From Corynespora cassiicola (taxonomy: Eukaryota; Ascomycota; Dothideomycetes; Pleosporales; Corynesporascaceae): a stretch of DNA of 64,000 nucleotides. This document shows positions 27,965-61,210 of this stretch, piece by piece. Position 1 is the first letter of the stretch. Every line of letters begins with the position of its first letter. The stretch spans positions 310,001 to 374,000 of the forward strand of contig JAEUWY010000016.1 in NCBI GenBank assembly GCA_022059125.1, written 5' to 3'. The position numbers were made by a program, and so were the translations under genes. The notes below the pieces were generated by a model, which saw only the letters and a program-made list of their open reading frames with translations, did no database searches and was not told where the DNA came from.

Positions 27965-28302
27965 TCTAAAATCGCGTGGCTCACGCGCTGAATGTGCTAG
28001 GTGATTACTGTTTTGATTTGATCTTTTGTTTCTAGTCGAAGTTTTGGATTTGCTTGTCATTAGGATCAGTCACAAAGCGATTTCCGAAGTGGCCAGACCT
28101 TATGACTGGTGTACAGTATGACTAGCGGGCAGAGTGACTGGTAATGTCTATAAAGCTGGCGTGTTTCTTTCTTCCAACCTTCATCCCTTCATGAGATTTA
28201 CAACATACCTTTTTGCGGTCAAATCAAAGAAAGCACATTTTCGTCTTTTTGCAACAGGAACTATTATTCAAGTCTATTTACATAGCCAGTGGTCATCAAA
28301 CA
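27965..28302 (+). promoter_or_regulatory. Promoter of kinase-fold gene A: three TGACT elements and TATA box
   Basis: TGACT occurs at 28103, 28119 and 28135, exactly 16 bp apart. The last lies 14 nt before TATAAA (28149-28154). The ATG used is 28303, giving a leader of roughly 120 nt. The same TGACT(C)-14-TATA spacing recurs upstream of five other genes in this window. Confidence 0.65.
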
Positions 28303-29442
28303 ATGGACTCGATCATGGATCCTGTGAATCAAATAACAGATCTGGAAGGAAAGATACCCAAGTTTCTTACGATCAAAGCCCAGCAGCCTGATGACGGACC
28401 TCACCATGTTGCCGTCTGCATTAAGAATACCAGCTCATCTCCTACCGAAAATACGGCCCCACAAGATAATCTTCATCTACCAGCGAAAGAAAAAATCGTT
28501 ATCCTCAAGGTTGCCATAAAACCGCGAGACATGGCTGTCCCGCTGGATAAAAATGACCCAACAATGAAGGAATTTTTACCTTTGCGTGACCTCAAGTATA
28601 AGAAGCGTCAAAGATCAGATTCAAGGAATGGAAGGTTTCATCCCAATCTTCTTCACCTAGATCATTTTGGCTTTCAAGAGACTATCCATCCATATTTCAC
28701 GAGAGAGACGATATTAGAAGGCCATCATATCGGGCACATTCGATCTATCGCCAAGCATCGCAACCAAAGGATTCCTGATGCGCTTCTTTTCCATCTTCTA
28801 TATCAAATTGCCTCAGCATATCGCTTTCTACACGAGGAGTGTGAATTGTACCACGAAAAACTACGAGACGATCAAATACTGATTCGATATCCTGGAACTA
28901 TATTCAATTCTAGGAACGAAAAGAGCACGCCTTACAACGGGTTTTCAGATCTTCCCCAGTTTTGGGACTTCAAGTGGCCAGATCTGATTCTGGACGGCAA
29001 TGTTAAGCATAAAAATGACGAATCCAATCTGAGAGATGATAATAAGACGATTTGTGGCATCTTTAGGGAGCTTCTTGTTCCGGGTTGGGAATGTGGAGAA
29101 GGCCACCTTAACGGTAAATGCAGTGTAGAAGAAGAATCTCACAGTGCAGGGTTTAAATGGATCAAGGACCTCGTCGAAAAAGAAAAGTTTACGTGGATCC
29201 TAATCGACTCAAGTTCCAGACTCCTCTATCACAAGTCGCGGAAGCAGTTGGCAGGTGAACGGAATTGGTTGGAAAATATGGAGTCGCTTTTAAATAAGAA
29301 CCAAATAGCTGCAGCGTCTGAACATACCATTGACAATGAGAGAAGAAGACAAAATCCCCTTAATGAATCGCTAAAGATAGAAGAATTGCGGATAACGAGC
29401 ACGGATGAATCGATGGATTATGTGAGTTTCAATCTGGAGTGA
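28303..29442 (+). CDS. Diverged kinase-fold protein A (probable pseudokinase)
   Basis: 379 aa, intronless, AT-rich. Start 28303 (MDSIMDPVNQ) was chosen as the first true ATG after the TATA box; an in-frame ATG at 28213 also exists. Residues 66-73 (VILKVAIK) look like strand beta-3 with its Lys. Residues 164-197 (HLLYQIASAYRFLHEECEL, then YHEKLRDDQILIRYPG) align with helix E and the catalytic loop of protein kinases. There the H-R-D aspartate is Lys (HEK, 184-186) and the metal-binding Asn is Gln191. No DFG is evident (FWDFKWPDLILD is the nearest). The next block, KTICGIFRELLVPGWECGEG, matches the same part of genes B and C. Kinase-fold membership is inferred from these landmarks. Function unknown; catalysis unlikely. 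Confidence 0.6.
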   Translation: MDSIMDPVNQITDLEGKIPKFLTIKAQQPDDGPHHVAVCIKNTSSSPTENTAPQDNLHLPAKEKIVILKVAIKPRDMAVPLDKNDPTMKEFLPLRDLKYKKRQRSDSRNGRFHPNLLHLDHFGFQETIHPYFTRETILEGHHIGHIRSIAKHRNQRIPDALLFHLLYQIASAYRFLHEECELYHEKLRDDQILIRYPGTIFNSRNEKSTPYNGFSDLPQFWDFKWPDLILDGNVKHKNDESNLRDDNKTICGIFRELLVPGWECGEGHLNGKCSVEEESHSAGFKWIKDLVEKEKFTWILIDSSSRLLYHKSRKQLAGERNWLENMESLLNKNQIAAASEHTIDNERRRQNPLNESLKIEELRITSTDESMDYVSFNLE

Positions 29443-29893
29443 AGGAGATCGATACAGGAACCACATGTCACACCACTCCGCCAAGAGATAAAACGGGTCC
29501 AAAATTGAGGAAAATTTCGACACTCGGCTAAAAGGGTTTTGATAGTTACTTGTCACTGTTACAAAAGCTTACACCACTATACCTGCTTTAGAGAAGGTAC
29601 GTTCTTAGTATACAAGAAATATATAATAAAATCTATATACATATACTACATATACTTAGAGTACAAAAGAAAGTTCCTCCCCAACCTATACATAGAAAAT
29701 TCCCCATTAAGTTTCCTACTTGAAGAAAACCCTAAGAATTATACAAACAAGAAAAAAACCCACCATGTATCTGCCGATCCAAATTAATTTAGAGAAATGC
29801 CATATTCTGTAGAGATCCAAATGTTGACTGAGACTATTGAGCAGGTGGGAAGATGCTCGTAACAACAGTTCTAGTGATTTCTCCAGAAGAACC
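29443..29893. other. AT-rich intergenic sequence
   Basis: Convergent 3' ends of kinase-fold genes A and B. 29590-29800 is a strongly AT-rich stretch (aaatatataataaaatcta and similar), unlike the GC-rich housekeeping parts of the window. No gene seen. Confidence 0.6.
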
Positions 29894-31162
29894 CTAAAAA
29901 CTTGGATCATTTAGAGCAGTATTCGTCAAAGTTTCGATGCTCTCGTCTAGTAAGTTGTTAGACATGGTATGAGGTGCCGTGCCTGATTGTTTCAATTCGT
30001 TTTCTTCAGCCAGCCGCTCGTCTTGTGCATGGTTCATGAGCTTTTCTAGTCGTGCATCGATAGCGTACCATACGTTCCTCCAATCGTCTTGTCCCAGTAT
30101 TCTCAATATATGTATTAACGTTTGTTGAACATTCGCTCCCATAAGAGAAAATGGGTGGCCCCCAGCGGCTGATCCAAGGCTTTTCATAAGTGCAATCCAC
30201 TCATAAGTATGCTCGTGGTTGTGATTAATGGAGTTACAAAACGCACTTTGATTTATCTCCGAAATTCCTTTTTTCTTTAAATCCTCGGGAAGTTCTTCAT
30301 TCTCGTCCCAAATGAAATCTTCAGGAGGTGCGTTCCACCCAGCTCTCACGGTTTCAATCATCGCAAGGGCGGCCATCTTGCTGTCGCCTATCTCAGTGGA
30401 CTCAAAAGTAGATCCGCCCACGGGCCGGCCTCCAACAATACGAAAGGGCTCAAATTCTGTCCATGTATTAAATTCGTCGATGAGAGGCGTAAAATCTCCA
30501 GTGGTTGCGCTCTCAAAATCGGTGATGACAAGATCTGGAAACACCGCTTTGTCGTGTAAACCGGCGAACCCGAGCTGAGAAAGTATGGTTCTTGTATGAG
30601 CTCCTGGGTATTGTAGTACCATACATTTCCTGGTGATATTGTTGTGTTTTATCCCTCTTTGTACCAGAAATTTCATTGCGGCGAACATCTGATGACTAAG
30701 CCAAAAGGCTAGAATTTCTGGGACTGGGAATTCGTGCTTTTTGGCAGCTTGATATATGTTTTCAAGGCTTATGCCACTGGTTATAGGTTGTACTTTGAAA
30801 AAGTCAAAGTTATCCCATAGCCTTGGGGGTTCTATAAGAACCGGGAATAGAGAAAAGTTACTTTGGTCGCCAATGTGAGGCTGCAAGTTCTCCAGAACTT
30901 CCAGTTCATGTAACAGAGAAGTTTTCTGCTCTGCCAAATTGCCTAGTTGGCAGGTGTATACAAGCACAACTGTAGAACGAGCAGTAGCGATAATCTGTCG
31001 AACCATAGAGTTGTCGTTTCCAATATTGACGAGATTGTAACGGTTTCTGACATAGTCCCTTGCGGCATCTTTGGGAATGCAAAAGAGTTTTAGGAATTTG
31101 TCGCCTGCCTTGGCCTCGTGGAGAAACATATGATCATTCGGAATAAGGTAGCGTTTTTCCAT
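29894..31162 (-). CDS. Diverged kinase-fold protein B (probable pseudokinase)
   Basis: 422 aa, one exon, ATG 31162. Clearly paralogous to gene C: shared IPNDHMFLHEA/LPNSLFFLHES, FCIPKDAAR/FCIPKNIAR, HELEVLENL/NELEILCEL, TSGISLENIYQAA/LSGISLENFFTAA. Kinase landmarks: VVLVYTC at beta-3 with no Lys; Glu in LLHELEVL (helix C); IKHNNITRKCMVLQ as catalytic loop, where HRD is H173-N-N175 and the metal-ligand Asn is Cys180; LVITDFESA as the DFG segment (DFE, 215-217). The C-terminal 200 residues are helical and end in a Thr/Asn-rich tail. Loss of the catalytic Asp, the Lys and the Asn suggests a non-catalytic scaffold or regulator. Function unknown. Confidence 0.65.
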   Translation of the reverse strand: MEKRYLIPNDHMFLHEAKAGDKFLKLFCIPKDAARDYVRNRYNLVNIGNDNSMVRQIIATARSTVVLVYTCQLGNLAEQKTSLLHELEVLENLQPHIGDQSNFSLFPVLIEPPRLWDNFDFFKVQPITSGISLENIYQAAKKHEFPVPEILAFWLSHQMFAAMKFLVQRGIKHNNITRKCMVLQYPGAHTRTILSQLGFAGLHDKAVFPDLVITDFESATTGDFTPLIDEFNTWTEFEPFRIVGGRPVGGSTFESTEIGDSKMAALAMIETVRAGWNAPPEDFIWDENEELPEDLKKKGISEINQSAFCNSINHNHEHTYEWIALMKSLGSAAGGHPFSLMGANVQQTLIHILRILGQDDWRNVWYAIDARLEKLMNHAQDERLAEENELKQSGTAPHTMSNNLLDESIETLTNTALNDPSF

Positions 31163-32044
31163 TGTGGCTGAATCGATAGACTACTGACAGCAATGCAGGT
31201 AGTCAGAGAAGCAGAAGCCGAAAAGAAGTTATATATTGTGAAAACACAAGCAGTAGGAGAAACAGTAATAGTGCTAAGAGTAGGGAACAATTTAAAGGCA
31301 CAAAAGGTAGATAAGATAATCAGGATGAGGTAAGAGACTTTTATGTAGTGAGAAGAAGAAGAATTTAGTTGGAGAGTTGAAGCCTTTATATACAAGTTGG
31401 GAGTCATGAAAGAATGTCATAGTAAGAGTCACGGATAGTCACCACGATATTAGTCATGATAGAATGAAATAGCAGGAGTCACAGAGTATGCTAGAATATA
31501 AGTCATGGAAAGATGATCGAGTAAGAGTCAGCGTGGTGAAACTAGTGTTATTATAGTCTACAGCATTTCTATGTAAATTCATGTTGAAAAAAAGGTTTTA
31601 ATACAATATGAAGTTATACTTGAATTTAAACATACCAGAAGACCAGCTGGCATTAAATAATAGAAGACGATCAATAAATAAAGCTACACAAGACTAGCCT
31701 GTGTAAATATACGTAAGAGATGTGTACAGAAAGCCATATATATTCACCAGCTTACACTCCTAAAGAAAATCTACATGAAAAGTTTCCTTGAGCCTTCATC
31801 TATCCAGAGTAATCCGTCGTTTATGGGCAGTTTGTATGAGATCAATAATTAACCCAAGCCCCGGAAAGCTTCTTGTGAGTCCATTCTAATTAATCTCTAA
31901 GGGTATCATGCGCATGAATTTGATAGCCTGAAATTAACCAGAAATATGATACGCTTCCACTCAATGTGCCGGAGAGGTCCAAATGTTCTCAGTTTTCTTG
32001 GTTGACAAAGAGACAAATGCTGACTCCAACCATCATTCGACATC
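31163..32044 (-). promoter_or_regulatory. Upstream region of gene B: TATA, TGACTC elements, tandem repeats
   Basis: On the minus strand a TGACTC (complement of 31401-31406) is followed 14-16 nt later by TATATAAA (complement of about 31385-31392), about 230 bp before the ATG. Further GAGTCA copies on the plus strand start at 31426, 31476 and 31525. The remaining sequence to 32044 is AT-rich with no gene seen. Confidence 0.6.
31402..31549. repeat. Three imperfect 49-50 bp tandem repeats
   Basis: Units start at 31402, 31452 and 31501, each beginning agtcatg and carrying an internal (a/g)gagtca. The first two share agtcatga.agaatg...atag and the third keeps the same layout with more changes. They lie directly upstream of the TATA box of gene B and multiply its TGACTC element. 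Confidence 0.65.
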
Positions 32045-33250
32045 TTATAGGTTATAAACCTTATTTGACAAATAGCTCTCTTTGAATCGACTTTCCAAGC
32101 TAGGGGTTCCTTTTACATCAAGACGATCCTGACGGACTGCGCTGCTTCGCTCCCTTTCTACCTTTGTCATGAACCCCTTCATTCGATCTCTTATAACCCC
32201 TCGAACTTCTTCCCATTCTTGCTCCTCATCTGGCAGCTTCCAGGTTTGCTTTATCTTCTCATAATCGGAAATTGAGTCCTTCATCTCGATGGATGTCATA
32301 ATGAAGCTCTTACCCTCACTGAAATCGGAAAGAGCGCGTTGTACCCTCGTCCATTCCTTGGTATGTTTAGAGTTGTCTGTCAGACATTCCAAGCAGTGTT
32401 CCTTGCTTTTAATTGAGAGACTCCGATCCTCTGGCTTGTCACCTCTCCAACCTGCACAAACGGTCTCTTCCATTGCGCTGAAAGCACTCATAATATCACC
32501 ATCTCTCACATCTACTCCTCCGCACTTCCTGACTCCTTTGGCAAAATCGGTAATAAGAAGATGAGGAAATGTAGGATCTCTCAAATCCGGAAATTCAAGC
32601 TTTATGCATTTTTTGTCAATGTGTCCGTGTTTAACGTTTGCATTTCTCATGTATCCCATCGCTTTGAACAGTTGATTTGCCAAGTCGACGGCGACAAATT
32701 CTGGAATAGGCAAATTGTAATTTATGGCGGCCGTAAAGAAATTTTCAAGGCTGATTCCACTCAGGAGAGCGATCGTCGTGAAACATGGCTGACCTTCGTA
32801 CAGCTGTGGAGGACCTTGAAATACCATCGGAAAACATGTATTGGCGGGTCTGCGTAATTCACACAAAATCTCCAATTCGTTGAGTAGACGTCTCTTAAAT
32901 TCTGGGGCATGTTTATTATAGGTGTATAATGCCACAACTTCCCCACGCAGTCTATGCATGTCGATCTCAGGTTCAGGGAGGGAGTCGCCTCCTCCACTTG
33001 CTTTGTCCTTTTCAAAGGTTTCCCTTTGCTCTCCAAGGTATTTTGCCTCGTACCGAGCTATGTTTTTGGGTATACAAAAGGCTATCACTTTCCCATCAGA
33101 CGACAAATGGGATTCGTGGAGGAAAAAAAGAGAGTTCGGCAAATAGTAGTAAAACGGATCTGGTACTAGTTCGACTGGGTTTGATTTGTCCTTTATGCCT
33201 GGGTCCATCCTTCCTGTGGGAGACAGGCCAGGTAGACGAGATCCCGACAT
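32045..33250 (-). CDS. Diverged kinase-fold protein C (probable pseudokinase)
   Basis: 401 aa, one exon, ATG 33250 (MSGSRLPGLSPTG). Paralogue of gene B, in tandem and in the same direction. Landmarks: VVALYTYNK near beta-3 (110-113); LLNELEILCEL (helix C, Glu kept); GPPQLYEGQPCFTTIALLSG as hinge-like segment; DLANQLFKAMGYMRNANVKH then GHIDKKCIKLE as helix E and catalytic loop, with HRD replaced by H208-G-H210 and the Asn by Cys215; LLITDFAKG (Asp235-Phe-Ala) at the DFG position; MEETVCAGWRGDKPEDRS matching METVRAGWN in gene B. The pattern again predicts a kinase fold without catalytic activity. The C-terminus is basic and charged. Function unknown. Confidence 0.65.
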   Translation of the reverse strand: MSGSRLPGLSPTGRMDPGIKDKSNPVELVPDPFYYYLPNSLFFLHESHLSSDGKVIAFCIPKNIARYEAKYLGEQRETFEKDKASGGGDSLPEPEIDMHRLRGEVVALYTYNKHAPEFKRRLLNELEILCELRRPANTCFPMVFQGPPQLYEGQPCFTTIALLSGISLENFFTAAINYNLPIPEFVAVDLANQLFKAMGYMRNANVKHGHIDKKCIKLEFPDLRDPTFPHLLITDFAKGVRKCGGVDVRDGDIMSAFSAMEETVCAGWRGDKPEDRSLSIKSKEHCLECLTDNSKHTKEWTRVQRALSDFSEGKSFIMTSIEMKDSISDYEKIKQTWKLPDEEQEWEEVRGVIRDRMKGFMTKVERERSSAVRQDRLDVKGTPSLESRFKESYLSNKVYNL

Positions 33251-33745
33251 AATGAAAGCAGTATGGAGATAAGGGACGGCAGAATAATGTGTAATGTGAA
33301 TAAGAGAATAGAGTCAGTTCAAGTAGTGATGAGCTTTGCTTTGGAAGAAGAGAAAAACTGTAAAGCTACATCTGCAGTCTTATATGCACGCTAAGAGTCA
33401 TAAAGCGGAGCGACAATAAGAGCCAATGTTTTCAAATTAACATCAACATAACCGTTACCCTTTGTTCAACCTGCACTCCGTGCCACTGAGCACCGTCATG
33501 AACAACCAACAACATTAAACCGGTGTAATATCCTTAAATTACTTCGTGATTAAACCACAGGGCTGGAAAACTTTGGTAAAAGAAAACGTAGTCAATGAAT
33601 TGTTAATATGTACATGCGAGCCCGAATGACTATCTCATCAAGTTAGGCACCCACCCCACCGTCGTACCATCCCCGTTGAAACCCCCGTTGAAACCCTCCT
33701 TATCTAACCCAGGCCCTCCACCTCTCCAACAACCTAGGAGTCAAC
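33251..33745 (-). promoter_or_regulatory. Promoter of gene C and spacer
   Basis: On the minus strand TGACTC (complement of 33395-33400, in ttatgactctt) is followed at +16 by TATAAG (complement of 33380-33385), about 135 bp before the ATG. A second gagtca is at 33311. The rest, to the next gene's stop, holds no feature I recognise. Confidence 0.6.
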
Positions 33746-35161
33746 CTAAGAGTCATCCTCATCATTCTCGCCGTTCAACTCCCGCCGCCGCTTCAACATC
33801 TTTGCCAACTCACTCTCACCTTCCTCCTGAGCCAGACCCACACTTGCGGCCGAAGTCCTACGCTCCGTAGTAGGAGGCGCCACCTTCCTAAGCCGGGACC
33901 GCTCTGTGGCCGCAGACGGCACAAAGGGCGAAGAATACTGCTGCGCGAGCGGGGGCTGGTGGATCGAGCCCCGCAGGCGAACGGCTGGGGCGGGCGCTCC
34001 ACCCGTGGCCGGCACCGTGCTGGCCGTGGCCTTTGACTCGGCGAGGGCCTGGGACTCGTGCTCGGGCTGGGTGCGCGTGCCAATCTTGAAGCGGCCGTAA
34101 TTTGTGTTCATGGGGGTCTGTGAGAAGTCGGGAAGTGGCGGGGGCGTGGGCTTCGGGGCCGGCTTGAGGGGCTTGGTCGAAGCTTGGGTAGTGGCGGTTT
34201 TGGGGGTAGGTAGTGGCGGGGGAGGCGGCGGGGCGGGGATACCGGCTGCGGGGGAGGCGGGAGGTGATAATTCGGTGACTGGAGAGGGCTTCTTTCGGGC
34301 TGCCATGATGGCTGGTGGTGTGGATGGTGGGGGAGTCAAGGGAGGGGATGTGGATCCTGCCGAAGACACCCGTGGCGAGGAGAAATACCCATCACCCGTG
34401 CCCCTACTCCTAGTCCTGCCCATGTCCATTCCCATTCCCATGCCCATACTCCTGCCACTGCCACGGCTCGTGCCACTGCCCATACCTGAGTGCGATGAGT
34501 ACGTCGTGGTAGTGAATTCATATTGATGCAACATACCTCCTCCACGCCGTGTGGTATCTTCTCCCATGATGTCTGGTCGAGGGATTTCCATTGAGGCCCG
34601 AATAGCAGCTTCGACGTCAGCCCTTTCTCGCGCCTGTTGGATACGTGAGAATTCTTCTGAGCTCTGGCGTGTGGTGAAAATAACCTCTTGTTCAAATTTC
34701 GCATGGCTGGCTGCGCGAGACTCGTCCATCGACATGGACATAACCCTTTGCACGTTTTGCTCGTGGAGCTCTTGCCGACGAGCCTCAGCCAAAGACGCCT
34801 CTCGGGCCTTTTCCAAGGCCTCCTGATGTTCCATGTGCCGCTTGTACGCAGCCAAAGATTCTTCCTGGGCTTTCTTCATCTCCATTCGCTGGAATTCTTC
34901 GTACTTGCGGTACTCTCGAAGACTCTCTTCGCGAGCGTTGTCGATCTCTCGCTGCATGGCCAATTGTTCTTGGGCGTCCCAGTGACTACGCTGACACCTA
35001 TCGCAGAGGCCTTCCTCGGTTATACGGCTGAAAATACACTGTGTTGATGGATTATCGGGGTCGCAGTTGATGCCCCGGCTACGCGCTGTAGCGCAGTACT
35101 CGATGTGGTCCTCCCGGGCGTGGGTGCAGTCATGCGCCCAACGCTTGGTGATGTGGCACAT
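33746..35161 (-). CDS. Coiled-coil, proline-rich protein of unknown function
   Basis: 471 aa in one exon. The N-terminus has a Cys/His cluster (MCHITKRWAHDCTHAREDH, then EYC, NCDP, QCIF and LCDRCQRSHW) that could bind zinc. Residues about 80-200 are a long charged helix rich in Glu/Arg/Gln (REIDNAREESLREYRKYEE), likely a coiled coil. A Gly/Met/Ser/Arg low-complexity segment (SMGMGMGMDMGRTRSRG) follows, then a proline-rich tract (PAPPPPPPLPTPK) and a basic C-terminal end (ELAKMLKRRRELNGEN). The C-terminal element recalls actin-binding or SH3-partner proteins, but this is only compositional. Divergently transcribed from the complex I 24 kDa gene. Confidence 0.7.
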   Translation of the reverse strand: MCHITKRWAHDCTHAREDHIEYCATARSRGINCDPDNPSTQCIFSRITEEGLCDRCQRSHWDAQEQLAMQREIDNAREESLREYRKYEEFQRMEMKKAQEESLAAYKRHMEHQEALEKAREASLAEARRQELHEQNVQRVMSMSMDESRAASHAKFEQEVIFTTRQSSEEFSRIQQARERADVEAAIRASMEIPRPDIMGEDTTRRGGGMLHQYEFTTTTYSSHSGMGSGTSRGSGRSMGMGMGMDMGRTRSRGTGDGYFSSPRVSSAGSTSPPLTPPPSTPPAIMAARKKPSPVTELSPPASPAAGIPAPPPPPPLPTPKTATTQASTKPLKPAPKPTPPPLPDFSQTPMNTNYGRFKIGTRTQPEHESQALAESKATASTVPATGGAPAPAVRLRGSIHQPPLAQQYSSPFVPSAATERSRLRKVAPPTTERRTSAASVGLAQEEGESELAKMLKRRRELNGENDEDDS

Positions 35162-35803
35162 GCTGTAGAGAATGTAGTGTGTTGCTGGATCGAAATGCAG
35201 GGTATGGCGGAATAATTTAAATAGCAGAAATCATAACCATTGTTGTAGCAAAAAAGCAATGAATGGGCGGGGAAGAATGACTGCCATGGCTTGTGAAGAA
35301 ACACGGCTATATAGCAGACTGTCGGTGAAAGTACTGCAGAAGAAAATGGAATAGTCACGCTGCTGCGTTGGATTGGACCCGCTGCTACGTTGATGGTATA
35401 CATGCTAGTACAATTCACTACGGGGAGGGTCGAGCAGACGTGGGATGCAGGGATTGGCCGGCGCGGGTGGGTACGCAAATGAGGCGAAGTGTATTGTGCC
35501 AAGCATTGTGATGAGGCGTTCAATCACGATATGAAGGGAAGAGCGGCTATGTAACGACGCGGGATCTGTCGATTCTGTATAAGTCGCATACCGATGCACC
35601 TGTTCAGGGCGCCAGAGACACGACACAGCGCGGAGATGGAGGGGATGAGGTGAGGTCCGGGATCGAAGGCCTCCTGACCGACGTGATGACAAGCCCCTTG
35701 CGCTGATTGGCCGCTTTGCCGATGCAAAGCGCCAAGATCGAAGCAGCTTCATCGTTGACATCTTCAATCAACGCCATCGCCTCCGACCCCAATCACGCCC
35801 ACC
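35162..35803. promoter_or_regulatory. Divergent promoter region
   Basis: 642 bp between the ATGs of the Pro-rich gene and the NADH dehydrogenase subunit. GC-rich near 35620-35760. No clear TATA box for the respiratory gene. No other feature. Confidence 0.45.
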
Positions 35804-36805
35804 ATGGCCTCCAAGCTGACCCCCTTCGTTTTCCGAAGCGCTCCACGGGCCCTGCGACAGCTTCAGAAGACCCAATGGCGGGCCTTCAGCCTCACAGCGC
35901 CTGCGCGGAGCGACTCGCTCATGGTGGTAAGTAATTCACGACCCGCAGCCCCAATTGCGCCGCTCACGCTTCCGCCAGCACCGCAACACGCCTGAGAACA
36001 ATCCCTCGATACCCTTCAAGTTCACGGCCCAGAATGAGGCCATCATCAACGAGATTCTCGCCCGGTACCCCTCGCAGTACAAGAAGGCGGCCGTCATGCC
36101 CCTTCTCGACCTCGGACAGCGCCAGCACGGATTCACAAGCATCAGCGTCATGAACGAGGTTGCGCGGTTATTGGAGATGCCCCCGATGCGCGTGTACGAG
36201 GTTGCGACCTTCTACACCATGTACAACAGGAACCCGGTCGGCCGATACCACGTCCAGGTTTGCACGACGGTGAGTGCGCATTTAGGACGGCTACGGCGGC
36301 AGCTGCTAATGACAATCCCAAGACCCCTTGCATGCTCTGCAACAGTGACGCCGTCATGAAGGCTTGCGAGGAGACGCTCGGCATCCACCACGGCCAGACC
36401 ACCGAGGACGGTCTCTTTACCTTGACTGAGGTCGAGTGCCTTGGCGCCTGCGCAAACGCCCCCATGGTCCAGATCAACGACGACTTCTACGAGGATCTCA
36501 CCTACGACACCACCTCCTCGCTGCTCAAGGCTCTCAAGAATGCGGCTGAGAAGGTTGGCACGAAGCCTGGAGAGACTGGCCTGGTTGGCGGCCCTGGCGG
36601 CTTCTACATGGAGGGCGACGCCGGCAAAGTTGCGGGCGAGGCGGCAATTGCTGAGCAGCAGCGGGCATACGAAGCCAAGGGCGTCAATGTGCCAACGCCC
36701 GGACCCTTGAGCGGAAGGGCGAGCTGCGAGCCCGCTGGCGGCTTGACCTCGTTGACGAGCGAGCCGTGGGGCAACGAGACGCTCAGGAAGGATGGTGAGC
36801 TGTAA
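35804..36805 (+). CDS. nuo-24: NADH:ubiquinone oxidoreductase 24 kDa subunit (complex I, NDUFV2)
   Basis: Mitochondrial matrix-arm subunit that holds the N1a [2Fe-2S] cluster next to the NADH-binding 51 kDa subunit. Exons 35804-35926, 35979-36269 and 36323-36805 give 298 aa. The N-terminus is a presequence ([20 protein letters not shown], many Arg and hydroxyl residues, no acids), followed after intron 1 by [15 protein letters not shown]. The thioredoxin-like domain has [20 protein letters not shown] and [18 protein letters not shown]. Cluster ligands are Cys in VCTTTPCMLC and [17 protein letters not shown]; intron 2 (53 nt) lies between CTT and TPC. The C-terminal tail is longer than in mammals ([15 protein letters not shown]). 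Confidence 0.96.
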
Positions 36806-40340: not shown

Positions 40341-40693
40341 GAGAGAGATGGTAAGTGTGCTTAGGCTGGATGAAATTTGGGTGTTTTGGCAGTGGTGTAA
40401 TGATCACTTCTTCCATGTGTTACAACGAGTTCGATATCCGATGAATGCAACGATTTCATGCATTTTATGTTTGGTTTGCTCGTTCGCTTGTTTGTCGTAA
40501 CTGTAGTCGTACACGTTCCAATCCCAATTCCATATCAAGTCGTTGCCTATCCGTGAAGACGTATAAAAAACCACATTACCCCCAAGAAAAACACAAGTCG
40601 TACAACTCTCCAAAAAGAAACACCGACGGGATACCCAGGTTGCCCCAAAACAAAAACAGACAAAAAAAGAAAAACAAATCGTTCGGGCATCAA
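40341..40693. other. Intergenic, convergent 3' ends
   Basis: 3' UTRs of the small membrane protein gene and the gene on the opposite strand. A-rich on the plus strand (40560-40680). No feature seen. Confidence 0.5.
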
Positions 40694-45730: not shown

Positions 45731-47718
45731 TTATATCAAAATAACTTCCGACTTTTCCATTCTCTTCATACAGTCTTTCCCAAACTCTTTAGCCTCTTCA
45801 TAAGATTTATATGACGGTATAAAACTGGCCATGTGGAGTTGAAGTATCATAAAGCCTACCCTACTATACGTATTCATATCGTGATGCTTCTTTACAACGA
45901 GACACAAGGCTACAGAATACTCTGAAATGTCATCTATGCCAATGACCATGGCCCAGAATTCTTTTTCAATATCGTTTTCGAGGCTGTTCCGTAGAAATTC
46001 CGATGAATGATCCCAGTAAATGGCCCGTGGCTCAAGTCTTTGGACAGACGCGCCAAACATTTTCAAAAGCCCAGCGGGATCGTTCAAAGAGACATTACCG
46101 GGCTCTGATGGCCGATTCTTCCGTGCCATCAACTTTCCCAAGTTCAATAACGGGGCTTTTAGTAAAATTTTGGCTTCTTTTATGCAACCCGTCATCTCAG
46201 ACCCTTCCGTAATAAATGTCGTATTGATGATCTCCGCGATGTTATACAGCGGCGGTTTGACAAACCTGACCTTCTCGCTTACAGACGCCCAGGACCATGA
46301 TGGTATTTTGCTATCTTCGGATGTGCAATGTGAAACGGGAATTATCTTTCTCCATAAGAGATCTTCTAACAATGTTTCTTGCCATAATCCCGCAATGTAA
46401 CGGCAATTGGGATGGCGTTGCTGTAGTTTTTTTGCTATTGCCGATATCGCTGGTAGCTTGTCCTTGTGGAAAGTGAGAGACCTTCGCGAGTATTCCTCCA
46501 CGAGTCCATGCCAATAGAAAGAGTTTACTTTGGTCGATGTCTCGCCATGTGATAAAGGTGCGAGTGAAAGGGGATCGGTTTTCTTTTTTTCGAATATTGG
46601 ATCGCTCTCGCGGGCCACAGATGACATGCATTCCCAGATGACTTCTTCAGCACCAAAGTGAAGAGTGCGGCGGGACAGGAGTTGCTCCTGAAGACACCAT
46701 CCTCTTTGGTATAGCGGATGATCCGCAGCGCTTTCCTCCCTGTATGAACTAATGCCGTCTGAATTTAGCACTTCAGGCAATACGAAGCGGATCTTGACGC
46801 CAGAGATTCCAGGTAAGATGTCGGCTAAATATCTCCGTTTCGTCTGTGTGAAACATCCCTGTGAGGAATCGTGGGCCTTGGAAGCAGCGATAGTAAACAA
46901 TGCGCCTTCGTAGACGCCAGCCATATGCGAAGCTTGAACATTCCAGTCGTCATCATCGTCTTGGATAATACACAGGCTGTCAATCCACAGGTACTTTACG
47001 TCCATGTTATGACATATTTGAATCGCATCTTGGAACGTTTTCGGTAACCGATCTACGAAGATGCCTTTTGATTTGTGTTCCAGAATGTTCGATCTCTGAG
47101 TCTTGAAGATATGATCTCCCGATCCCCAACAGTGACTCAGGCATGCATATTCTATCGATGTCACCGATTCGGTCAACAGTATTGGATCGTTCTCGATGTA
47201 GAGGTATCTTATGGGTACCGCGTGGTCGCTACTGCGAGGATCTACCGAATTACAGGCATCATGTTGTTTAATGCACGTATCAAACCATTTTTTGATCTGT
47301 TTAGATGTCGATAACGATCCTGTATCTCCAGGAAGTGCAACATTTGGAACTGTAAGGGGATCGGCATATAAAATTTTTTGGAGGGCAAATCAGGAGTGCA
47401 ATACTCACCACTGTCGAGTATGAGCTCTAAAACCTCCCGGGATTGTCCGAACCGTAGGTAGCAATTTTTGCGACCATCTATTGCTTCAGAAAACCAGAGA
47501 AAGCGTAGCTTTTGCATCTGCCCGAGCTGAAGTGTAGCCTGCTCAACACACCGCAACAGAATCATTGAAAGCAAACATCCTCTATCGCATTTGGCCCGCC
47601 AGTCACTCAGAGATGATGACACATCTTCCGTAAGAGCGTAGCCACCATACTCGTCCGCCAAGTCTTCGCAATGACTGCAACGATGGTTCTCAACTTCTTC
47701 CCACGAGTTTATGTGCAT
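45731..47718 (-). CDS. HET-domain protein (heterokaryon incompatibility family)
   Basis: 642 aa from exons 47718-47409 and 47349-45731 (59-nt intron, donor GTGAGT, acceptor TACAG). The N-terminus has a Cys/His patch (HRCSHCEDLADEYGG). Exon 2 begins with a linker, then IKKWFDTCIKQHDACN, the usual lead-in to the HET domain. The core follows: SIEYACLSHCWGSGD, LPKTFQDAIQICHNMDVKYL, WIDSLCIIQDDDDDWNVQAS and MAGVYEGALFTIAASKAHDS, all hallmark blocks. YQRGWCLQEQLLSRRTLHFG and IPSWSWASV complete the family pattern. Such proteins can trigger cell death when cells with unlike alleles fuse, but most paralogues have no proven role. A TATATAA (complement of 47857-47863) lies about 140 bp upstream. Confidence 0.93.
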
Positions 47719-51956: not shown

Positions 51957-52630
51957 GGGTGGTAGGGTGTGGTAGGGTGTAGTAGTAGGGTGCAGGCCGA
52001 ATCACAGGCAAGCCGGTAGAAGGCGAAGGATTGCTCGGGCCGTTTGGTCGACGACGAGGGGCGGCTTCAGCTGCGTGAGTGGGCGTGAGTGCGTGTGAGT
52101 GCGTGCGTCGAGGTGGTGAGGAGCCAGATGGTGTAGTGCGGCGGGCTGCGGTTGGAGGGCAGCGACGACCAAGCAGCCTGCCCCCTGCCCCGAGGCTTCC
52201 CAAACAGGCAATTGTGCACGTGAGGCCTCTCTCCGGCAGCATCCATGGCCCGCTGATCGCTGCAGCATCCAACGTCGCCATGATGGCCTCGACACGGCCG
52301 AATGCACTACCAGCCCTTTCTCCACCGCCTCGTCTGCCCTCTGCAGCACGCGCAGAGCCACCGCACGTCGCTGCATCGCTTCTCCAAGGTCCTGCGCGAA
52401 CCATTGGGCCGCTAGGCCGCTTCGGGAGCCGCACTGGCCCAGTGGACGTCACTCGCAGCCGCGCCCTGGACGGATGAAGAGCGCATCCCGCTCAACCACT
52501 CGCCGCCTCGTCTCCTCCCGGCATTTTTTACTGACCAACACCGCCCATCCGTCGGCCCACTTGTCTGGCTGGCTTATCGCTGTCGCCATTGCCCTTCTGT
52601 ATCAGCATCCCTCCCCTCTCGGCATGCGCA
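51957..52630. other. Intergenic region
   Basis: GC-rich spacer with the promoter of the magnesium transporter gene. A short gtgtggtagggtgtagtagt repeat-like tract lies at about 51960-51990. No gene seen. Confidence 0.5.
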
Positions 52631-55258: not shown

Positions 55259-55944
55259 AGGGGTTAAGGGGGAAAAGGGAGGGTATATCTGGAAATGGAA
55301 TGGGATCGCGAGGGCGTTTTTTCATTTTGGCGGTTTCGAATAAAGAGGTGTTTTGGGATAGTATATCGCGCGTAGAATGCATCGCTTGCGCTTGTTTGGG
55401 TATATACACTTTTGGCTTTCGGCTTATTTTCGCTTTTTTCGGCGGGGGGCTACATGGAGAAGAGGAGAGGGAAGGTGGCGATGTTGTAGTAGTAGATGCG
55501 TATAGTAGTGCGGTTGTATGAGCAAAAATTAGATTTATGATTAATATGGCTGTTGTGGTCTGTGATGTGACCGTTCAGACTTAAGGCTGTGGCTGGTGTG
55601 TTGGGAAGGGGCGTTGGTGGCGGGAGGATAGTTGGATGTGGTTGACTGTTGTTGTTGTGGCGTGTTTTGCACTGCTGTAGAGGCGTTCAGATGTTGAGTG
55701 GGTTGTGTTCTATGTGAGTAGGAGTTGGAACTTTGACTCCGGCAGAAAATAGTCAAGGGTTGAAGGGCGAGTATGGGTCACGTTGGCTACAACGGATCCT
55801 TTGGTGTGTGCCTTGGAGTAACTCATAGCGTGAGGAATCAACAACAATAAATAGATTGAGTTTGTGTGTAGTTGCAAATAAAACAAAGGAAAAATAGAGG
55901 AAGTTGGATACAAAAGAGAAAGCACGGGATGGCGGCTTTCGCGC
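55259..55944. other. Intergenic region, convergent 3' ends
   Basis: 3' UTRs of the Mg2+ transporter gene and of module gene 1. GT-rich on the plus strand near 55560-55700. No gene seen. Confidence 0.5.
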
Positions 55945-56760
55945 CTAGACATCTTCCCATTGCATTTCCAGAAGAACCGCCGCCAATCCTCCCCTTCCTC
56001 TGTAGGGACCATCAACTTCTTTCTTGAAGTTGACATCATGACTGTCCCAATTCAAGAAGACGTATGTGAAATGCTCCACCACGTTCAATAACGCTTGTCC
56101 AGGATTATAGCGAGTAGGTAGGCCTAATTCAGGCACTAATGAAATTTCGCGAGTATAAAGATAATTTAGAGCTTTCATCTCACTGATGATTTCCTCCTCA
56201 TATTGACCATGGTAGTATCTGGTGCCTTGTTTGTTGGTTTGATCCAGTCGTTTCTTGAGGATCTCGACGCCGCCACGGGGCTGTTTCCAAAAGTTGAATC
56301 CACCGTTCTCGCGGTCACATTTTGTCAACATCTCTGAGATTGTTTCCTGGGTGATTTTGTCGCTCGATTTGTAGAGGCCGGGAGGACAAATTTTTTTTAC
56401 TCTCCAGTCGGCCAGTCTCGCAGAGATGTGAGCATAAACAGCATGGCTGACTGCTGTGATGTTATCGTTTTGAGCGTTCTCTATAAGCCAGTTCCCAACG
56501 TGAGCTTCGGCCGTTTCGAGGCTTTTTATTTCAGCGCCTGAAATTCCGACGGTATAGCGGAAAAGTTCTCCCTCGATTGCGGTTTCGAAGTTTCTGTTTT
56601 TGGGGCCCTCAGTTTCACTGAAAGATATAAGGCCGGATGCTGTTTTGGGGAGGGGTTTGGCAGGGGGTTTGGCAGGGAGCTTGGCCGCAGTTTTGCTTAT
56701 TGGGAGTCCTTCTATTATATCATGCTCATGTGATGGAACTAGCAGGTTGTTTTTTTCCAT
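55945..56760 (-). CDS. Orphan helical module protein 1
   Basis: 271 aa, one exon, ATG 56760. After a Lys/Pro/Ala-rich leader (AKLPAKPPAKPLPKTAS) it has one copy of a module shared with the next genes upstream. Conserved blocks in order: GELFRYTVGISGAEIKSLET, VGNWLIEN, VYAHISARLADWRVKK, FNFWKQPRGGVEILKKRL, EEEIISEMKALNYLY and EHFTYVFLNWDS, ending in GRGGLAAVLLEM. Predicted mostly helical with many aromatic and charged residues. No signal peptide, membrane helix, metal-binding or enzyme motif. I know no family with this pattern. Sequence and codons are AT-rich compared with the flanking housekeeping genes. Confidence 0.62.
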   Translation of the reverse strand: MEKNNLLVPSHEHDIIEGLPISKTAAKLPAKPPAKPLPKTASGLISFSETEGPKNRNFETAIEGELFRYTVGISGAEIKSLETAEAHVGNWLIENAQNDNITAVSHAVYAHISARLADWRVKKICPPGLYKSSDKITQETISEMLTKCDRENGGFNFWKQPRGGVEILKKRLDQTNKQGTRYYHGQYEEEIISEMKALNYLYTREISLVPELGLPTRYNPGQALLNVVEHFTYVFLNWDSHDVNFKKEVDGPYRGRGGLAAVLLEMQWEDV

Positions 56761-57084
56761 GATTGCAATATAAAGCTGAAGTTCTGGTAGTGAAATCGTG
56801 GGAAAATTTTGTTTGCCGAAATAAAGAGAACAAGATCCTACAGTGCTCTACGGTACTCTATATATAGCTTGGTTGAGTCATATCATGAATGACTTGTTAT
56901 TCTTCTATTAGTGTTTGGATAACGTGTCAAGTCACAAGTATGCTGTCATAGTTTTATAGAAAAAGTTTGTAGAGTGGTATCAAAACAAAGATAATAAAAT
57001 AAACTAACATACAAGAGAGAGAAGTTTAAACATTAAGAAACAAAATAAGCATAGAAAAGAGAATTATAGCCCTCCAGAAAATAC
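56761..57084 (-). promoter_or_regulatory. Promoter of module gene 1
   Basis: On the minus strand TGACTC (complement of 56875-56880, in atatgactcaacc) is followed at +14 by TATATATA (complement of 56859-56866), about 105 bp before the ATG. The remainder is AT-rich with no gene. Confidence 0.65.
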
Positions 57085-58698
57085 CTAAATAAAATACCCC
57101 ATTACCGCTCTAGCCAGTCTCCTCAGGCCACCAAGTTTTTCGACCTTGTCCTTGAGTTTTTCGTCAACAAGTGTATGGTAATTTTTTACTACATACGTGA
57201 AGTGACTTTTAATCACCTCCGCTTGATTGATGTCCTGTTCCAGTTGTTCACTGTCGACTGGTCTACTTCCCACTTCTCCAGCTTTCTTGTGTATATTCCC
57301 GCTCATAAGGGCTTCCAAAGCCTGGATCTCTAATATCGAATCGCTTTCTGTGTCTTGATATTGTTTTTCGCCCGTTATATCCGGATGTCTAGTTACGAGA
57401 CTTTGGAATTTCTCAAGACTTCCTTGCGGCTGTATCCAATCAACAAATTTATTTTGGCCATTGGGAGATCTTTTTTCCTTCAGAAGTCTTGCCAGCCGAA
57501 CCATGGCCTCAGAAACAACTTTTGCTTCGGGGTCGTTAGGATGCGAACCATTCGACATAAACACTACCTCTACAATCGAACTTCCGATTTCCTTGTACGA
57601 GTGGTGATTCTTCAACTCAAGCATTCTTATGAAGAAATGCATGTAGGTTTCTTCATTAAACCGCTTCACCCGCTTTTCATCTCCATTTTCCATAAGCCAG
57701 TCTCCAATGATGACTCCTTTGATGGAATCTGCCTTGTACTCAGAATCTTTGCTATCGGCATATAGCTCGAGAACATATTCGAACAGATCCATCTCCAGAG
57801 TTTTTTCAAGTTTGTGGTCGATCGGAATGCTCATGAAATTGCCGCTGAAGCTTATGACATTTGTACCAGTGGCAGGTGTCGAAGGTGGTGGAGTACAATA
57901 GAATTCCAGCACATTTCTTGCTATTGTGAGCTGGCTGAGATACTCTTGGCCTTTCAACGCACGTTTGATTGGCTCCGTCTCCCAATTTAAGAACACACAA
58001 AAGTAAAAATGGGCCATTCTTTGCCAAAATACCAGATGCTGATTTTTCCGAGGGTCGCGGCGGGCTTTATCCAAGTCCGTTGAAATTTTATCTCCAGGTC
58101 TTCTTCCTTCTTCCTTGATCTTACGCACGAAAATTGCTAGATCCACAATCACTCTTATTTCTTAATATTCATTCATGGAACAATTTGGACCATAAGGGTT
58201 CGTCTCATCCATTTCATCCTTAACCAAGAACCGCGATCGATGTTTTGTCAACATAGTTATCGTGCTCAACGGATCAGTCCAGTTGGTAAATTCAAAATTA
58301 CCGCTTGAACCTTCGCTCAGCATGACTCCCACATCTTCTTTAGTCATATTTTTCTCCACTATGGCACGAGTACGTAGCCACCACGCCCCTTCTTCGTTAT
58401 TCCAATTTTTGTATCTTGCCCGGATGTGTAAATAAACTCTTCTGTTGATGTCTGGAAGTAATTTCGCTTCCATTTGGATGCTGAAAAAGTCTCCGAGGCG
58501 GCTTTCTAACCAGGCAAATCTCTTGTCGACAATTTTATGTTTTCCGTCGAGCATTCCATGCACGTAAAGAAATAGCAACGCTTCGATTTCTGATTTTGGA
58601 CCGTCCTGGGATCCCTCACTATAGTACTTTTCGAAGTCGATGAGCTTAGGTGATTCTTCAAAAGGTCCATGGGAGGGAGTAATATCGATAGTAGTCAT
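57085..58698 (-). CDS. Orphan two-module protein 2, interrupted by an in-frame TAA
   Basis: Two open frames, 58698-58162 and 58161-57085, are in the same phase and separated only by TAA at 58164-58162. The upstream part starts at ATG 58698 (MTTIDITPSHGPF; the frame opens earlier at a TTG) and carries module copy 1 (ALLFLYVHGML, RLGDFFSIQM, VYLHIRARYKNW, FEFTNWTDPLSTITML). The downstream part has no ATG until 58017, but its sequence right after the stop continues the same module: EIRVIVDLAIFVRKIKEE aligns with EEIISEMKALNYLY of protein 1, then AHFYFCVFLNWE. A second full module follows (MDLFEYVLELY, IIGDWLMEN, TYMHFFIRM, FVDWIQPQGSLEKF, HFTYVVKNY). It was most simply one ~537-residue protein. 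The stop is a nonsense change, a readthrough site, or hidden by a weak-consensus intron. Confidence 0.55.
58162..58164 (-). other. In-frame TAA inside a conserved module
   Basis: The stop sits between NEY and EIRVIVDL, in the middle of the module, with no frameshift. CAA to TAA, a C-to-T change of the type made by repeat-induced point mutation, would explain it, as would other single changes. Possible donors nearby (GTTAAG, GTCCAA) are poor. Confidence 0.6.
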
Positions 58699-59159
58699 CC
58701 TTGCTACTATTGACAACTATCATATATCAGCGCCTATACATAAATAGCTAGACTGGAGCTTGATTGTACTAGATTAGATGATAGTATAGAGGTCGAGAGT
58801 GTTGTTTCACTGGTTTGATATGTGCCTGATACAATGAAGAATCTTTTGATCTCCAGATTTCTGTAAAATGAGTTGAGGGGGGATCAATGTTCGAAGGCCC
58901 GGTTTTTTCTTTTTTATGTAAGATATGAGTCACGGTGGCAACATATTGGCTTTAAAGATCATGATTCACTGTTAGAACTCATATAAACCTTAACTCATCT
59001 TTTTAAATCCATATCAAGTCTATAAACTTATATTTAATAGTATAAACAATAACAATTAGCTTGTCAGAGCTGATTTCTTCTTTTAATCAAAATGTATCAT
59101 AGTATATATGTATATATATATTGTGTTATGATACGGTGAATTTAAAGAGAGTCATAAAA
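58699..59159 (-). promoter_or_regulatory. Promoter of module gene 2 and AT-rich spacer
   Basis: On the minus strand TGACTC (complement of 58927-58932) is followed at +14 by CATAAAAAA, a TATA-like variant (complement of 58910-58918), about 215 bp before ATG 58698. The spacer contains a TA-rich tract (gtatatatgtatatatatat, 59104-59123) and a second GAGTCA at 59149, 6 bp past the stop codon of module gene 3. No gene seen. Confidence 0.55.
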
Positions 59160-60038
59160 TTAACCCATAACCCCCATAAGATACCGTATTAATGTTCTTT
59201 TACCCTTTTCATTATTACAATTAAGGCTACTCCTTTGTAAATACCCTCTTACTCTTGGGTTTGTTGTTCCCGGCTTAGTCCAATACAAATCATTTTCCCA
59301 GTGTTTGCTAATATGCCAAGTCTCAGTCAATAGTCTCTCCCATTCTTCTTGCATGAAAGCACTTCGTTTCCTCCGAGGTTTTGTAAGAATCTCTTGAGAC
59401 CATGACTTATAATCAGGCTTTGCCCCCAACCTGGTTTGCTGTGCATATGAAGCAAAGGACCAAAACCGATCCATCTCTATCACCTTCTCGCCTGATCTGA
59501 AGTAGTTTACAGCGAAATCAGACCTGAATGTGTGGACCAGTTCCTCGAGTAATTCAATACTACCCTTAGGATCTTCCCAATTCTCGAATTCCTTCTTGTC
59601 TTTTTTTGTGCTCTCAAGGGCCACCTTGATATACTCCTTCTTCATATTATGTTTGATTGCCCTATACACGTATTTGGCATTTTCATCTTTAGTTTCATTC
59701 CAACTCTGGAAGCGAGTGAGTACATTCTCATACACAAGTGCATTCAGACTGTTCGGCCGTTCTTCTTCCTTCAGGCAGCATATCCAATCCCCGAGGAGAG
59801 TGGCATTTATTCTTCTCTGATCATTTGGATCGTCAGTAATCTCCTTAGAGTTTACCGCTTTGAACCACTCGAACATGCCCAACTCCATATCTTCGACGTT
59901 CTCATCCGTAAGGTTTTGCCATGCCTCACCAAATCGGAAGTTGATAAGCCCCCCACAGATTATAGCTTTATCTTGTATATTTTCAGACCTGGTAGCAGCA
60001 GCAGCAGCAGCAGCAGCAGTAGCCGGAGTATCGCCCAT
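59160..60038 (-). CDS. Orphan helical module protein 3
   Basis: 292 aa, one exon, ATG 60038. After MGDTP come Ala/Thr residues encoded by a GCT/GCA triplet repeat. The module follows: ELGMFEWFKAVNSKEI, LLGDWICCLKEE, VYENVLTRFQSWNETK, FENWEDPKGSIELLEELVHT, VIEMDRFWSFASYAQQ, ending HISKHWENDLYW and RTLIRYLMGVMG. It aligns over its whole length with proteins 1 and 2, with identities concentrated on aromatic and Gly/Asp/Trp positions. The C-terminal part (KPRRKRSAFMQEEWERLLTE) is more basic than in the paralogues. No known domain. Codon use is AT-rich. Confidence 0.62.
   Translation of the reverse strand: MGDTPATAAAAAAAATRSENIQDKAIICGGLINFRFGEAWQNLTDENVEDMELGMFEWFKAVNSKEITDDPNDQRRINATLLGDWICCLKEEERPNSLNALVYENVLTRFQSWNETKDENAKYVYRAIKHNMKKEYIKVALESTKKDKKEFENWEDPKGSIELLEELVHTFRSDFAVNYFRSGEKVIEMDRFWSFASYAQQTRLGAKPDYKSWSQEILTKPRRKRSAFMQEEWERLLTETWHISKHWENDLYWTKPGTTNPRVRGYLQRSSLNCNNEKGKRTLIRYLMGVMG
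59995..60021. repeat. CAG/GCT trinucleotide microsatellite in coding sequence
   Basis: Eight or nine CAG units on the plus strand encode polyalanine near the N-terminus of module protein 3. The tract is likely to vary in length between strains. Confidence 0.8.
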
Positions 60039-61210
60039 ACTGGATGTTATGATTGATAGATGTAATGGTGTAGCCGTATTTTTTAGTTGAGATGTGTTGA
60101 GACCGGTTGTATCGAAGACTGATGCGATAATGGTAAGTGCTCAGGAGTTTATGGTTTTGCTGAGACTCACGGGAGAACTCGTTGTTACTTTGTGATGAAG
60201 AATATGGTGTCCTTGGTGAGCAATGTTCAGTGGTTCGTAGGCTCGTTGTCGCTTGTCGTGAGTTTATGGTCAATGTGCAAAAGTCAAGTGTAGGGAAATA
60301 GATATTGGATATGGGCTGACGCTTGTACAAGATTCTTCTTGTAGTCAGAGTATGATTGATTCACAAAGCTTTTGTTTTATTGAGCAAAAACATAGTCCGC
60401 CACAGCTGAGGTGAAGAGCCCTTTTATAATCTGAAAGAGTCATAATATTCGTGGATGAGTCTTGGAGACGCTCATATATCACCGATGACACACAGCTCCC
60501 CTTTCCGCTTCCGAAATTATCGCGGCGACCTAGACCTACACAGAAGGCTCGTCCCGAATGGCTGGTTTGGCTACTGGCCACCACCCGAACACGTAACATA
60601 CCTTTCGGCTCCTACGATACCGCCAACAGACGGATGCAGACTTATACTGTAAGTGGATCAATTCACAAGACTAAAAAAGTTGCTACCACAAAGATCATGT
60701 CTGCTGAGGCTATTTTCATTAGGACAACAGATATCCATTCACTAATAGTCACCAAGGAGGCCTAATCAAGGTAGAACAAGCGATGTATCACAAACATTTA
60801 ACTCCTAATTTCCCGAGCTGTGTCAACAATCTCCGGAATAAGCCTTTGCTTGGTGATACCAGCTTTGTCAACGAAAACGCTGGGAAGCACGAAAATGTGA
60901 CCTGAAAGGACTTGTAGTCTTTGCACCAGGGATATCACTCACTCGGTTTTCGTAACAAATGATGCGTATGAAGGCAAGAAGGCTCACACCCATGCAATTA
61001 TCCAAGGCAGGTACCAATACAATGGCACCCCAATGTAGTACAAACAACGGTCCTCTCATGACTACACCACCATGACTCTAACCCCGACAAATGCTCAGCG
61101 CGCAAGTACAAACACCCATTCGTTACAAAAATGCCAAACCAATAAAATCAATAGCACACAACTAAACCTCTAAAGTGCTGACCACGCCCCCGCTATGCCC
61201 CTAACATCGC
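60039..61210 (-). promoter_or_regulatory. Promoter of module gene 3 and intergenic spacer
   Basis: On the minus strand TGACTC (complement of 60437-60442, in ttatgactctttc) is followed at +14 by TATAAAAG (complement of 60421-60428), about 390 bp before ATG 60038; the long leader may hold an intron. A 65-codon plus-strand frame from ATG 60455 (MSLGDAHISPMTHSSPFRFR) starts only 12 bp from this element and is not called. 60766-61210 is the 3' UTR side of the desaturase, with nothing recognised. Confidence 0.5.

What the first reader, a model, noticed from the sequence alone, without database searches (positions are those of the whole stretch)
28100..60445. Six orphan genes in two separate blocks share one promoter layout: TGACT(C), then a TATA-like box 14 nt on
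Reading each promoter on its coding strand and counting from the first T of TGACT: gene A has TGACT at 28135 and TATAAA at 28149 (+14). Gene B has TGACTC (complement of 31401-31406) and TATATAAA at +14. Gene C has TGACTC (33395-33400) and TATAAG at +16. Module gene 1 has TGACTC (56875-56880) and TATATATA at +14. Module gene 2 has TGACTC (58927-58932) and CATAAAAAA at +14. Module gene 3 has TGACTC (60437-60442) and TATAAAAG at +14. The HET and secreted-protein promoters in the same window have TATA boxes but no such element. TGACTC is the core recognised by Gcn4/AP-1-type bZIP proteins. Two protein families that look unrelated, about 23 kb apart, therefore seem to share one switch, or arose by copying a common promoter cassette.
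Basis: partly seen in the sequence, partly recalled or inferred. Interest (0 to 1): 0.88.

Follow-up and report, generated by a model that had tools for sequence, protein, structure and literature searches.

The report
Shared promoter switch on orphan genes
In a plant-associated fungus, unrelated gene families with almost no known relatives share the same short DNA switch a nearly fixed step in front of the box where transcription machinery assembles, suggesting that one control protein turns young genes on together.

Summary
Gene B's protein is 96% identical to one of Corynespora cassiicola, so the genome is probably Corynespora. All six motif/box pairs sit where stated; A has TGACTG, C spaces at +16, M2 has a weak CATAAA box and an in-frame stop. 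TGACT at +14 before TATA occurs 4 times in the window against 0.03 in shuffles. M-family paralogues continue outside the window. Spacing-free TGACT counts also favour the six held-out promoters (p 0.008). Genome-wide the spaced pair does not exceed its reversed control, so it marks few genes. B and C look like pseudokinases; the M family has no relative found. Outside the core the promoters are not alike, against recent cassette copying. Most likely an AP-1/Gcn4-class bZIP protein binds just upstream of TATA, as BIP1 binds TGACTC in Magnaporthe. Binding and co-expression are inferred. A genome-wide orphan-gene regulon is open.

The parts
28103..28154 (+). Gene A core promoter: TGACT at 28103, 28119 and 28135, TATAAA 28149-28154 (+14 from the last)
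28303..29442 (+). Gene A, 379 aa, probably a distant member of the B/C family (BLAST to B only E 0.008 over 69 aa)
   Evidence: no Pfam match; other places in the genome only at E>=0.018
31385..31456 (-). Gene B core promoter: TGACT starting at 31456, 31441, 31431 and 31406, TATATAAA 31392-31385
29894..31162 (-). Gene B, 422 aa, kinase-like protein with non-canonical catalytic motifs; 96% identical to C. cassiicola Philippines BS50DRAFT_636824
33379..33400 (-). Gene C core promoter: TGACTC 33400-33395, TATAAG from 33384 (+16)
32045..33250 (-). Gene C, 401 aa, tandem paralogue of B (E 1.9e-31)
56859..56880 (-). M1 core promoter: TGACTCA from 56880, TATATATA from 56866 (+14)
55945..56760 (-). 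M1, 271 aa, M family
58910..58932 (-). M2 core promoter: TGACTCA from 58932, weak box CATAAAAAA from 58918 (+14)
57085..58698 (-). M2: one frame, 178 codons, an in-frame TAA (58162-58164), then open to 57085 with a second M-type repeat; interrupted, or spliced across the stop
60421..60442 (-). M3 core promoter: TGACTC 60442-60437, TATAAAAG from 60428 (+14)
59160..60038 (-). M3, 292 aa, M family; low-confidence all-helical model

Best explanation
A sequence-specific activator, most likely a bZIP dimer of the AP-1/Gcn4/BIP1 class, binds TGACTC/TGAGTCA (in A and B with two or three more TGACT copies upstream) just upstream of the TATA box and helps TBP/TFIIA/TFIIB assemble there. Unrelated families with almost no known relatives on one contig (A/B/C at C16:338-343 kb, the M family at C16:366-397 kb) are thereby placed under one condition-dependent switch. 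Shown here: the sites, their spacing, their statistical excess, and their restriction to these families in 114 kb. Inferred: that a bZIP protein binds, that it activates, that the genes are co-expressed. The elements were probably gained or kept under selection rather than recently copied between families.
For:: 4 places at +14 in the window, 0.03 expected; the layout (TGACT or TGAGTC, 13-19 nt) is in 5 of 6 window promoters and 2 of 6 held-out promoters (N3, L016b); 0 of 1000 dinucleotide shuffles reach either count. N1 is a third held-out case only if its start codon lies downstream of the mechanical ATG, which sits inside TATGACTC; 8 of 8 layout places in 114 kb lie at these families (N1 included), 0 of 34 other ORFs., free of any spacing choice: TGACT/AGTCA averages 4.2 (6 window genes), 2.7 (6 held-out) and 0.79 (34 others) per 450 bp, Mann-Whitney p 2.2e-4 and 0.0076; it is the most over-represented 5-mer of the 12 promoters (41 seen, 15 expected)., offsets: TGACTC or TGAGTC 10-20 nt before a perfect TATAAAAG is at 6 places in the genome, 3 of them M-family genes (searched after those sites had been seen); 2 of 11 distinct double-TGACT-TATA places in the genome are genes A and B; fungal bZIP precedents BIP1 (TGACTC) and CpcA (TGA(C/G)TCA).
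Against: No expression, binding or start-site data. Held-out N1b, N2 and L016a lack the layout. A has TGACTG and M2 a poor box. Whole-genome counts do not exceed the reversed-pattern control in 7 of 8 pattern searches (one search is 15 vs 7). No PF00170 bZIP match lies on C16. Gene starts are mechanical ORF starts, not annotations.
Confidence: 0.58

Rival explanations
1. Copied cassette: one ancestral promoter was duplicated onto both families.
For: M3, N3 and L016b share extra letters between motif and box (TTTCAG/TTCAG ... TATAAAAG), and with the core included 14 of 45 promoter pairs score above shuffles at z>2.5, some between families. Within the M family promoters probably descend from one another.
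Against: With the core removed, 0 of 45 upstream and 2 of 45 downstream pairs reach p<0.05 (upstream the motif is masked in the real pairs but not in the shuffles, so that test is conservative). A/B and M proteins are not detectably homologous.
Confidence: 0.15
2. General core-promoter grammar of TATA genes in this fungus, not a gene-specific switch.
For: For ATGACT the spacing +14 is the commonest genome-wide (3, 6, 16, 8, 8 places for gaps 7 to 11; hand count).
Against: 0 of 34 neighbouring ORFs have it although 9 of them have a TATA-like box within 450 bp. Whole-genome counts do not exceed the reversed controls in 7 of 8 searches.
Confidence: 0.12
3. Same cis element, but bound by something other than a bZIP, or by a repressor that competes with TBP.
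For: Several sites are bare TGACT half-sites (TGACTG, TGACTA), and the nearness to TATA would suit a repressor.
Against: TGACTCA and TGAGTCA both occur, as expected for a pseudo-palindromic bZIP site; precedents.
Confidence: 0.22
4. Chance, picked out by a pattern-seeking reader.
For: Post-hoc choice of motif and spacing, here too when the rule was widened.
Against: The unbiased 5-mer scans rank TGACT first, and the held-out promoters are TGACT-rich without any spacing rule.
Confidence: 0.04

Closest known systems
BIP1 regulon of Magnaporthe oryzae (PMC10833574; abstract, outline and passages seen)
   Same: bZIP protein, TGACTC core with CATGACTCG extension, a promoter with two sites, functionally diverse genes expressed together, activator shown by reporter mutation.
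   Different: The term TATA does not occur in its main text, so no coupling to TATA is described; its targets are effectors, enzymes and receptors, not orphan tandem families.
Cross-pathway control (Gcn4/CPC-1/CpcA), element TGA(C/G)TCA (PMC3199737; passages seen)
   Same: Same core sequence, both S variants.
   Different: The elements named there lie about 600-700 bp upstream; here 14-19 nt from TATA. Only M1, M2, N3 and L016b have the full 7-mer.
Neurospora lineage-specific genes clustered with HET-domain genes (PMC10684091; passages seen)
   Same: Orphan genes near HET genes, conditional expression. This window also has a HET gene between the two families.
   Different: That study reports no enrichment of mat 1-2-1, adv-1 or pp-1 sites upstream of its responding orphan genes; here a site is enriched.

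Membership tests
Gcn4/AP-1-class bZIP target promoter | TGACTC/TGASTCA-type core in the promoter, above chance | tested here: met
Gcn4/AP-1-class bZIP target promoter | Both symmetric forms TGACTCA and TGAGTCA used | tested here: met
   TGACTCA at M1, M2; TGAGTCA at N3, L016b
Gcn4/AP-1-class bZIP target promoter | Binding of a bZIP protein in vitro or in vivo | not testable with these tools
   14 places match PF00170 at E<=0.01, 13 over the cut-off, none on C16; no binding data
BIP1 regulon | BIP1 orthologue in this genome | not tested
   No BIP1 sequence was fetched; its paper says Pfam does not detect its bZIP domain
BIP1 regulon | Expression dependent on BIP1 in appressoria | not testable with these tools
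   no expression data
Copied promoter cassette | Sequence homology extending beyond motif and TATA | tested here: not met
   (10 of 12 promoters, 45 pairs)
Protein-kinase fold (B, C, and A in the alignment) | Sequence similarity to solved kinases | tested here: met
   profile of A, B, C and P0001 hits ULK3 at E 2.2e-4 and many further kinases more weakly; no Pfam match; structure model unusable
Protein-kinase fold (B, C, and A in the alignment) | HRD and DFG catalytic motifs intact | tested here: not met
   B reads KHNNI...DFE and C KHGHI...DFA at the aligned stretches (assigned by eye; A not assigned)

The most novel reading that the evidence does not exclude
A dedicated bZIP-TATA core-promoter module serves as an entry switch for young genes across this genome: unrelated, little-known families are recruited into one regulon by gaining TGACTC at a near-fixed step from TATA. 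Besides the families here, similar layouts precede uncharacterised ORFs at C1:1144 and 1146 kb (+14), C12:1168 kb (+14), C1:2154 and 2440 kb (+15), C4:520 kb (+15), C21:24 kb (+18) and C16:1183 kb (+13 to +17 in a TATATATAAA run, three sites in a row).
Probability: 0.22. Interest if true: 0.8.

Novelty: new variant of a known kind. Interest (0 to 1): 0.56.

Why it matters
How species-restricted genes acquire regulation is an open question, and the Neurospora study of orphan-HET clusters found no enriched sites for the regulators it tested (PMC10684091, passages). Here non-homologous families with almost no known relatives share an element with a defined position, so the question becomes directly testable: one transcription-factor deletion and one RNA-seq experiment would show whether new genes join an existing regulon by gaining a TATA-coupled bZIP site.

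Tried and rejected
Genome-wide enrichment of the spaced pair: rejected. Forward+reverse against the reversed-pattern control: 55 vs 61, 198 vs 248 (20), 164 vs 249 (21), 41 vs 45 (22), 31 vs 31 (30), 54 vs 61 (31), 5 vs 13 (53); only the double-site pattern exceeds it, 15 vs 7 (37; 11 distinct places once overlaps are merged, the control places not being listed). Searches list only the first places. The tool warns that it skips simple repeats and very common words.

Orphan-gene regulon from the +14 list: of the 16 ATGACT-N9-TATAWA places, 3 are window genes B, M1 and M3. I read the DNA at all 13 others: three look like promoters of uncharacterised ORFs (C1:1144 kb, C1:1146 kb, C12:1168 kb), two are copies of one repeat (C3, C6), and the other eight are AT-rich, inside an ORF, uncertain, or without a convincing ORF. 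Most distant hits are probably chance. Of the +15 places L045-L047 none looked convincing.

Structures: the B model is useless (pLDDT 33); the M3 model (pLDDT 61) gave no PDB match at E<=0.001. M-family homologue search: the single hit P0002 is the counterpart of N3b, which hhalign does not join to the M family, so alignment A3 wrongly contained it. Homologue searches of the large protein collection were run for B, M3 and A3 only; A and C were not searched there. A regex slip missed TGAGTC at offset 14; correct it.
Full report
Identity and setting. The window is C16:310001-374000 of a 44.35-Mb, 23-contig genome. Gene B's protein is 96% identical to BS50DRAFT_636824 of Corynespora cassiicola Philippines and has no other relative at E<=1e-3 in a search of 5.8 billion proteins, so the genome is taken to be Corynespora. 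A published C. cassiicola assembly is 44.85 Mb (PMC5840194, passages).

Observation. All six promoter strings are present. In the window TGACT followed by TATAWA/TATAAG occurs at +14 four times (A, B, M1, M3). The shuffle mean is 0.03 and the maximum 1 in 200, and of 1024 5-mers at offsets 8-30 only TATAT at 10 ties. M2 is weaker (CATAAA) and its frame contains an in-frame TAA. C is at +16. A reads TGACTG.

Held-out test. The M family continues beyond the window: N1 (C16:380962+), N1b (383185+), N2 (384670+), N3 (386269+), L016a (396077-) and L016b (397316-). Reading the promoters showed N3 with TGAGTCATTTCAGTTATAAAAG (+14), L016b with TGAGTCATTCAGGTGACGTATAAAAG (+18) and N1 with TATGACTCTTGGTCAGTGGCCTATAAAAC (+19, its mechanical ATG lying inside the motif); N1b, N2 and L016a lack such a pair. 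The rule 'TGACT or TGAGTC, 13-19 nt before TATAWA/TATAAG' was therefore set after the fact. Under it 5 of 6 window promoters and 2 of 6 held-out promoters pass (N1 falls outside the 450 bp before its mechanical ATG), with 0 of 1000 shuffles reaching either count; at exactly +14 it is 4 and 1. Over 114 kb on both strands the rule matches 8 places: A, B, C, M1, M3, N1, N3, L016b; 0 of 34 other ORFs have it, 9 of which have a TATA-like box. A test free of spacing agrees: TGACT/AGTCA is the most over-represented 5-mer in the 12 promoters (41 seen, 15 expected) and second in the held-out six alone after AAAAA; held-out promoters exceed the 34 others at p 0.0076.

Rarity in the genome. The pair is not enriched genome-wide (Tried and rejected), so the local concentration is the signal. 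TGAGTC 8-36 nt before TATAAAAG occurs at 5 places in the genome; 2 of these are N3 and L016b. TGACTC 10-20 nt before TATAAAAG occurs at M3 and twice at C21:23-24 kb (offsets); one of the C21 sites lies 144 nt before a 149-aa ORF, and no clear ORF follows the other. The double TGACT pattern has 11 distinct places, among them A and B. For ATGACT the exact +14 spacing is the commonest (16 places against 3, 6, 8, 8; counted by hand).

The genes. B and C are clear paralogues (E 1.9e-31). A is probably a distant member (23% identity to B in the alignment; BLAST E 0.008 over 69 aa); if it is not, the layout spans three unrelated families. A profile of A, B, C and B's counterpart matches solved protein kinases weakly but consistently (best E 2.2e-4), with non-canonical HRD/DFG positions in B and C, so pseudokinases are likely. 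M3 is predicted all-helical at low confidence. Of the M proteins, four window pieces and N1 and N3 were scanned against Pfam without a match above cut-off, and no relative was found by M3 or by the A3 profile, apart from the misplaced N3b. A and B show no similarity to the M profile.

Mechanism. A bZIP dimer on TGASTC about 1.3 helical turns before TATA would sit beside TBP/TFIIA (general knowledge) and could help load it. Extra TGACT copies 16-50 nt further up in A and B would raise occupancy. Precedents are BIP1 (TGACTC, extension CATGACTCG, site mutation abolishes expression) and CpcA (TGA(C/G)TCA). The genome has 14 places matching the bZIP profile, 13 over the cut-off, none on C16, so a regulator of this profile would act in trans. 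Binding, activation and co-expression are inferred, not shown.

Copying or convergence. Outside motif and box the ten promoters compared are not alike, so a recent cassette is unlikely between families; within the M family, M3, N3 and L016b share letters next to the box.

Wider class. Uncharacterised ORFs elsewhere have similar layouts: C1:1144 and 1146 kb (a tandem pair, +14), C12:1168 kb (+14), C1:2154 and 2440 kb (+15), C4:520 kb (+15), C21:24 kb (+18), C16:1183 kb (+13 to +17 in a TATATATAAA run). At C1:1146 kb and C4:520 kb the mechanical ORF starts before the box, so the true start is assumed to lie downstream. C1:1360 kb has two TGACT before TATATA (+15) but no ORF of 70 aa or more until 707 nt on. 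Eight ORFs from C1:1144/1146, C1:2154, C1:2440, C4:520, C12:1168 and C21 have no Pfam match above cut-off; they were not searched for homologues, and they were found by searching for the motif without a matched control, so this is a lead only.

Literature. Among the rows shown in searches (PMC open-licence papers only; titles and abstract starts) none describes a TATA-coupled TGACTC layout at orphan genes; this is not proof of absence.

Noticed in passing
57085-58698 (-): M2 is one frame with a single in-frame TAA at 58162-58164; it continues open into a second M-type repeat. Interrupted in this strain, or the stop lies in an intron.
   Followed up: partly
C16:387619-388176 (N3b, L015 3619-4176): 185-aa ORF inside the M cluster, not an M member by hhalign; its C. 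cassiicola Philippines counterpart (BS50DRAFT_636804) comes from a contig of the same length as B's counterpart, so the region is probably syntenic.
   Followed up: partly
L032 (C1:1143262-1146328, -): Two tandem uncharacterised ORFs, each with GGTGAGTC ... TATGACTGT and TATAAA at +14; the larger has a sub-threshold V-ATPase_G match (E 4.2e-4).
   Followed up: partly
L029 (C21:23282 and 24159, +): Two TGACTC-TATAAAAG pairs 0.9 kb apart beside small uncharacterised ORFs; two of the six such sites in the genome. No clear ORF follows the first.
   Followed up: partly
L030 (C16:1183137-1183090, -): TGACT, TGAGTC and TGACTC in a row before TATATATAAA; a 217-aa ORF starts 425 nt on.
   Followed up: no
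45731-47718 (-): HET-domain gene (Pfam HET, E 1.3e-18 for the 45731-47005 piece) lies between the two families, as in the orphan-HET clusters described in Neurospora.
   Followed up: no
L019, L022, L026 (C2:2348 kb, C5:3215 kb, C7:73 kb): Stretches of 17-30% GC, possibly repeat-degraded; motif hits there are likely composition artefacts.
   Followed up: no
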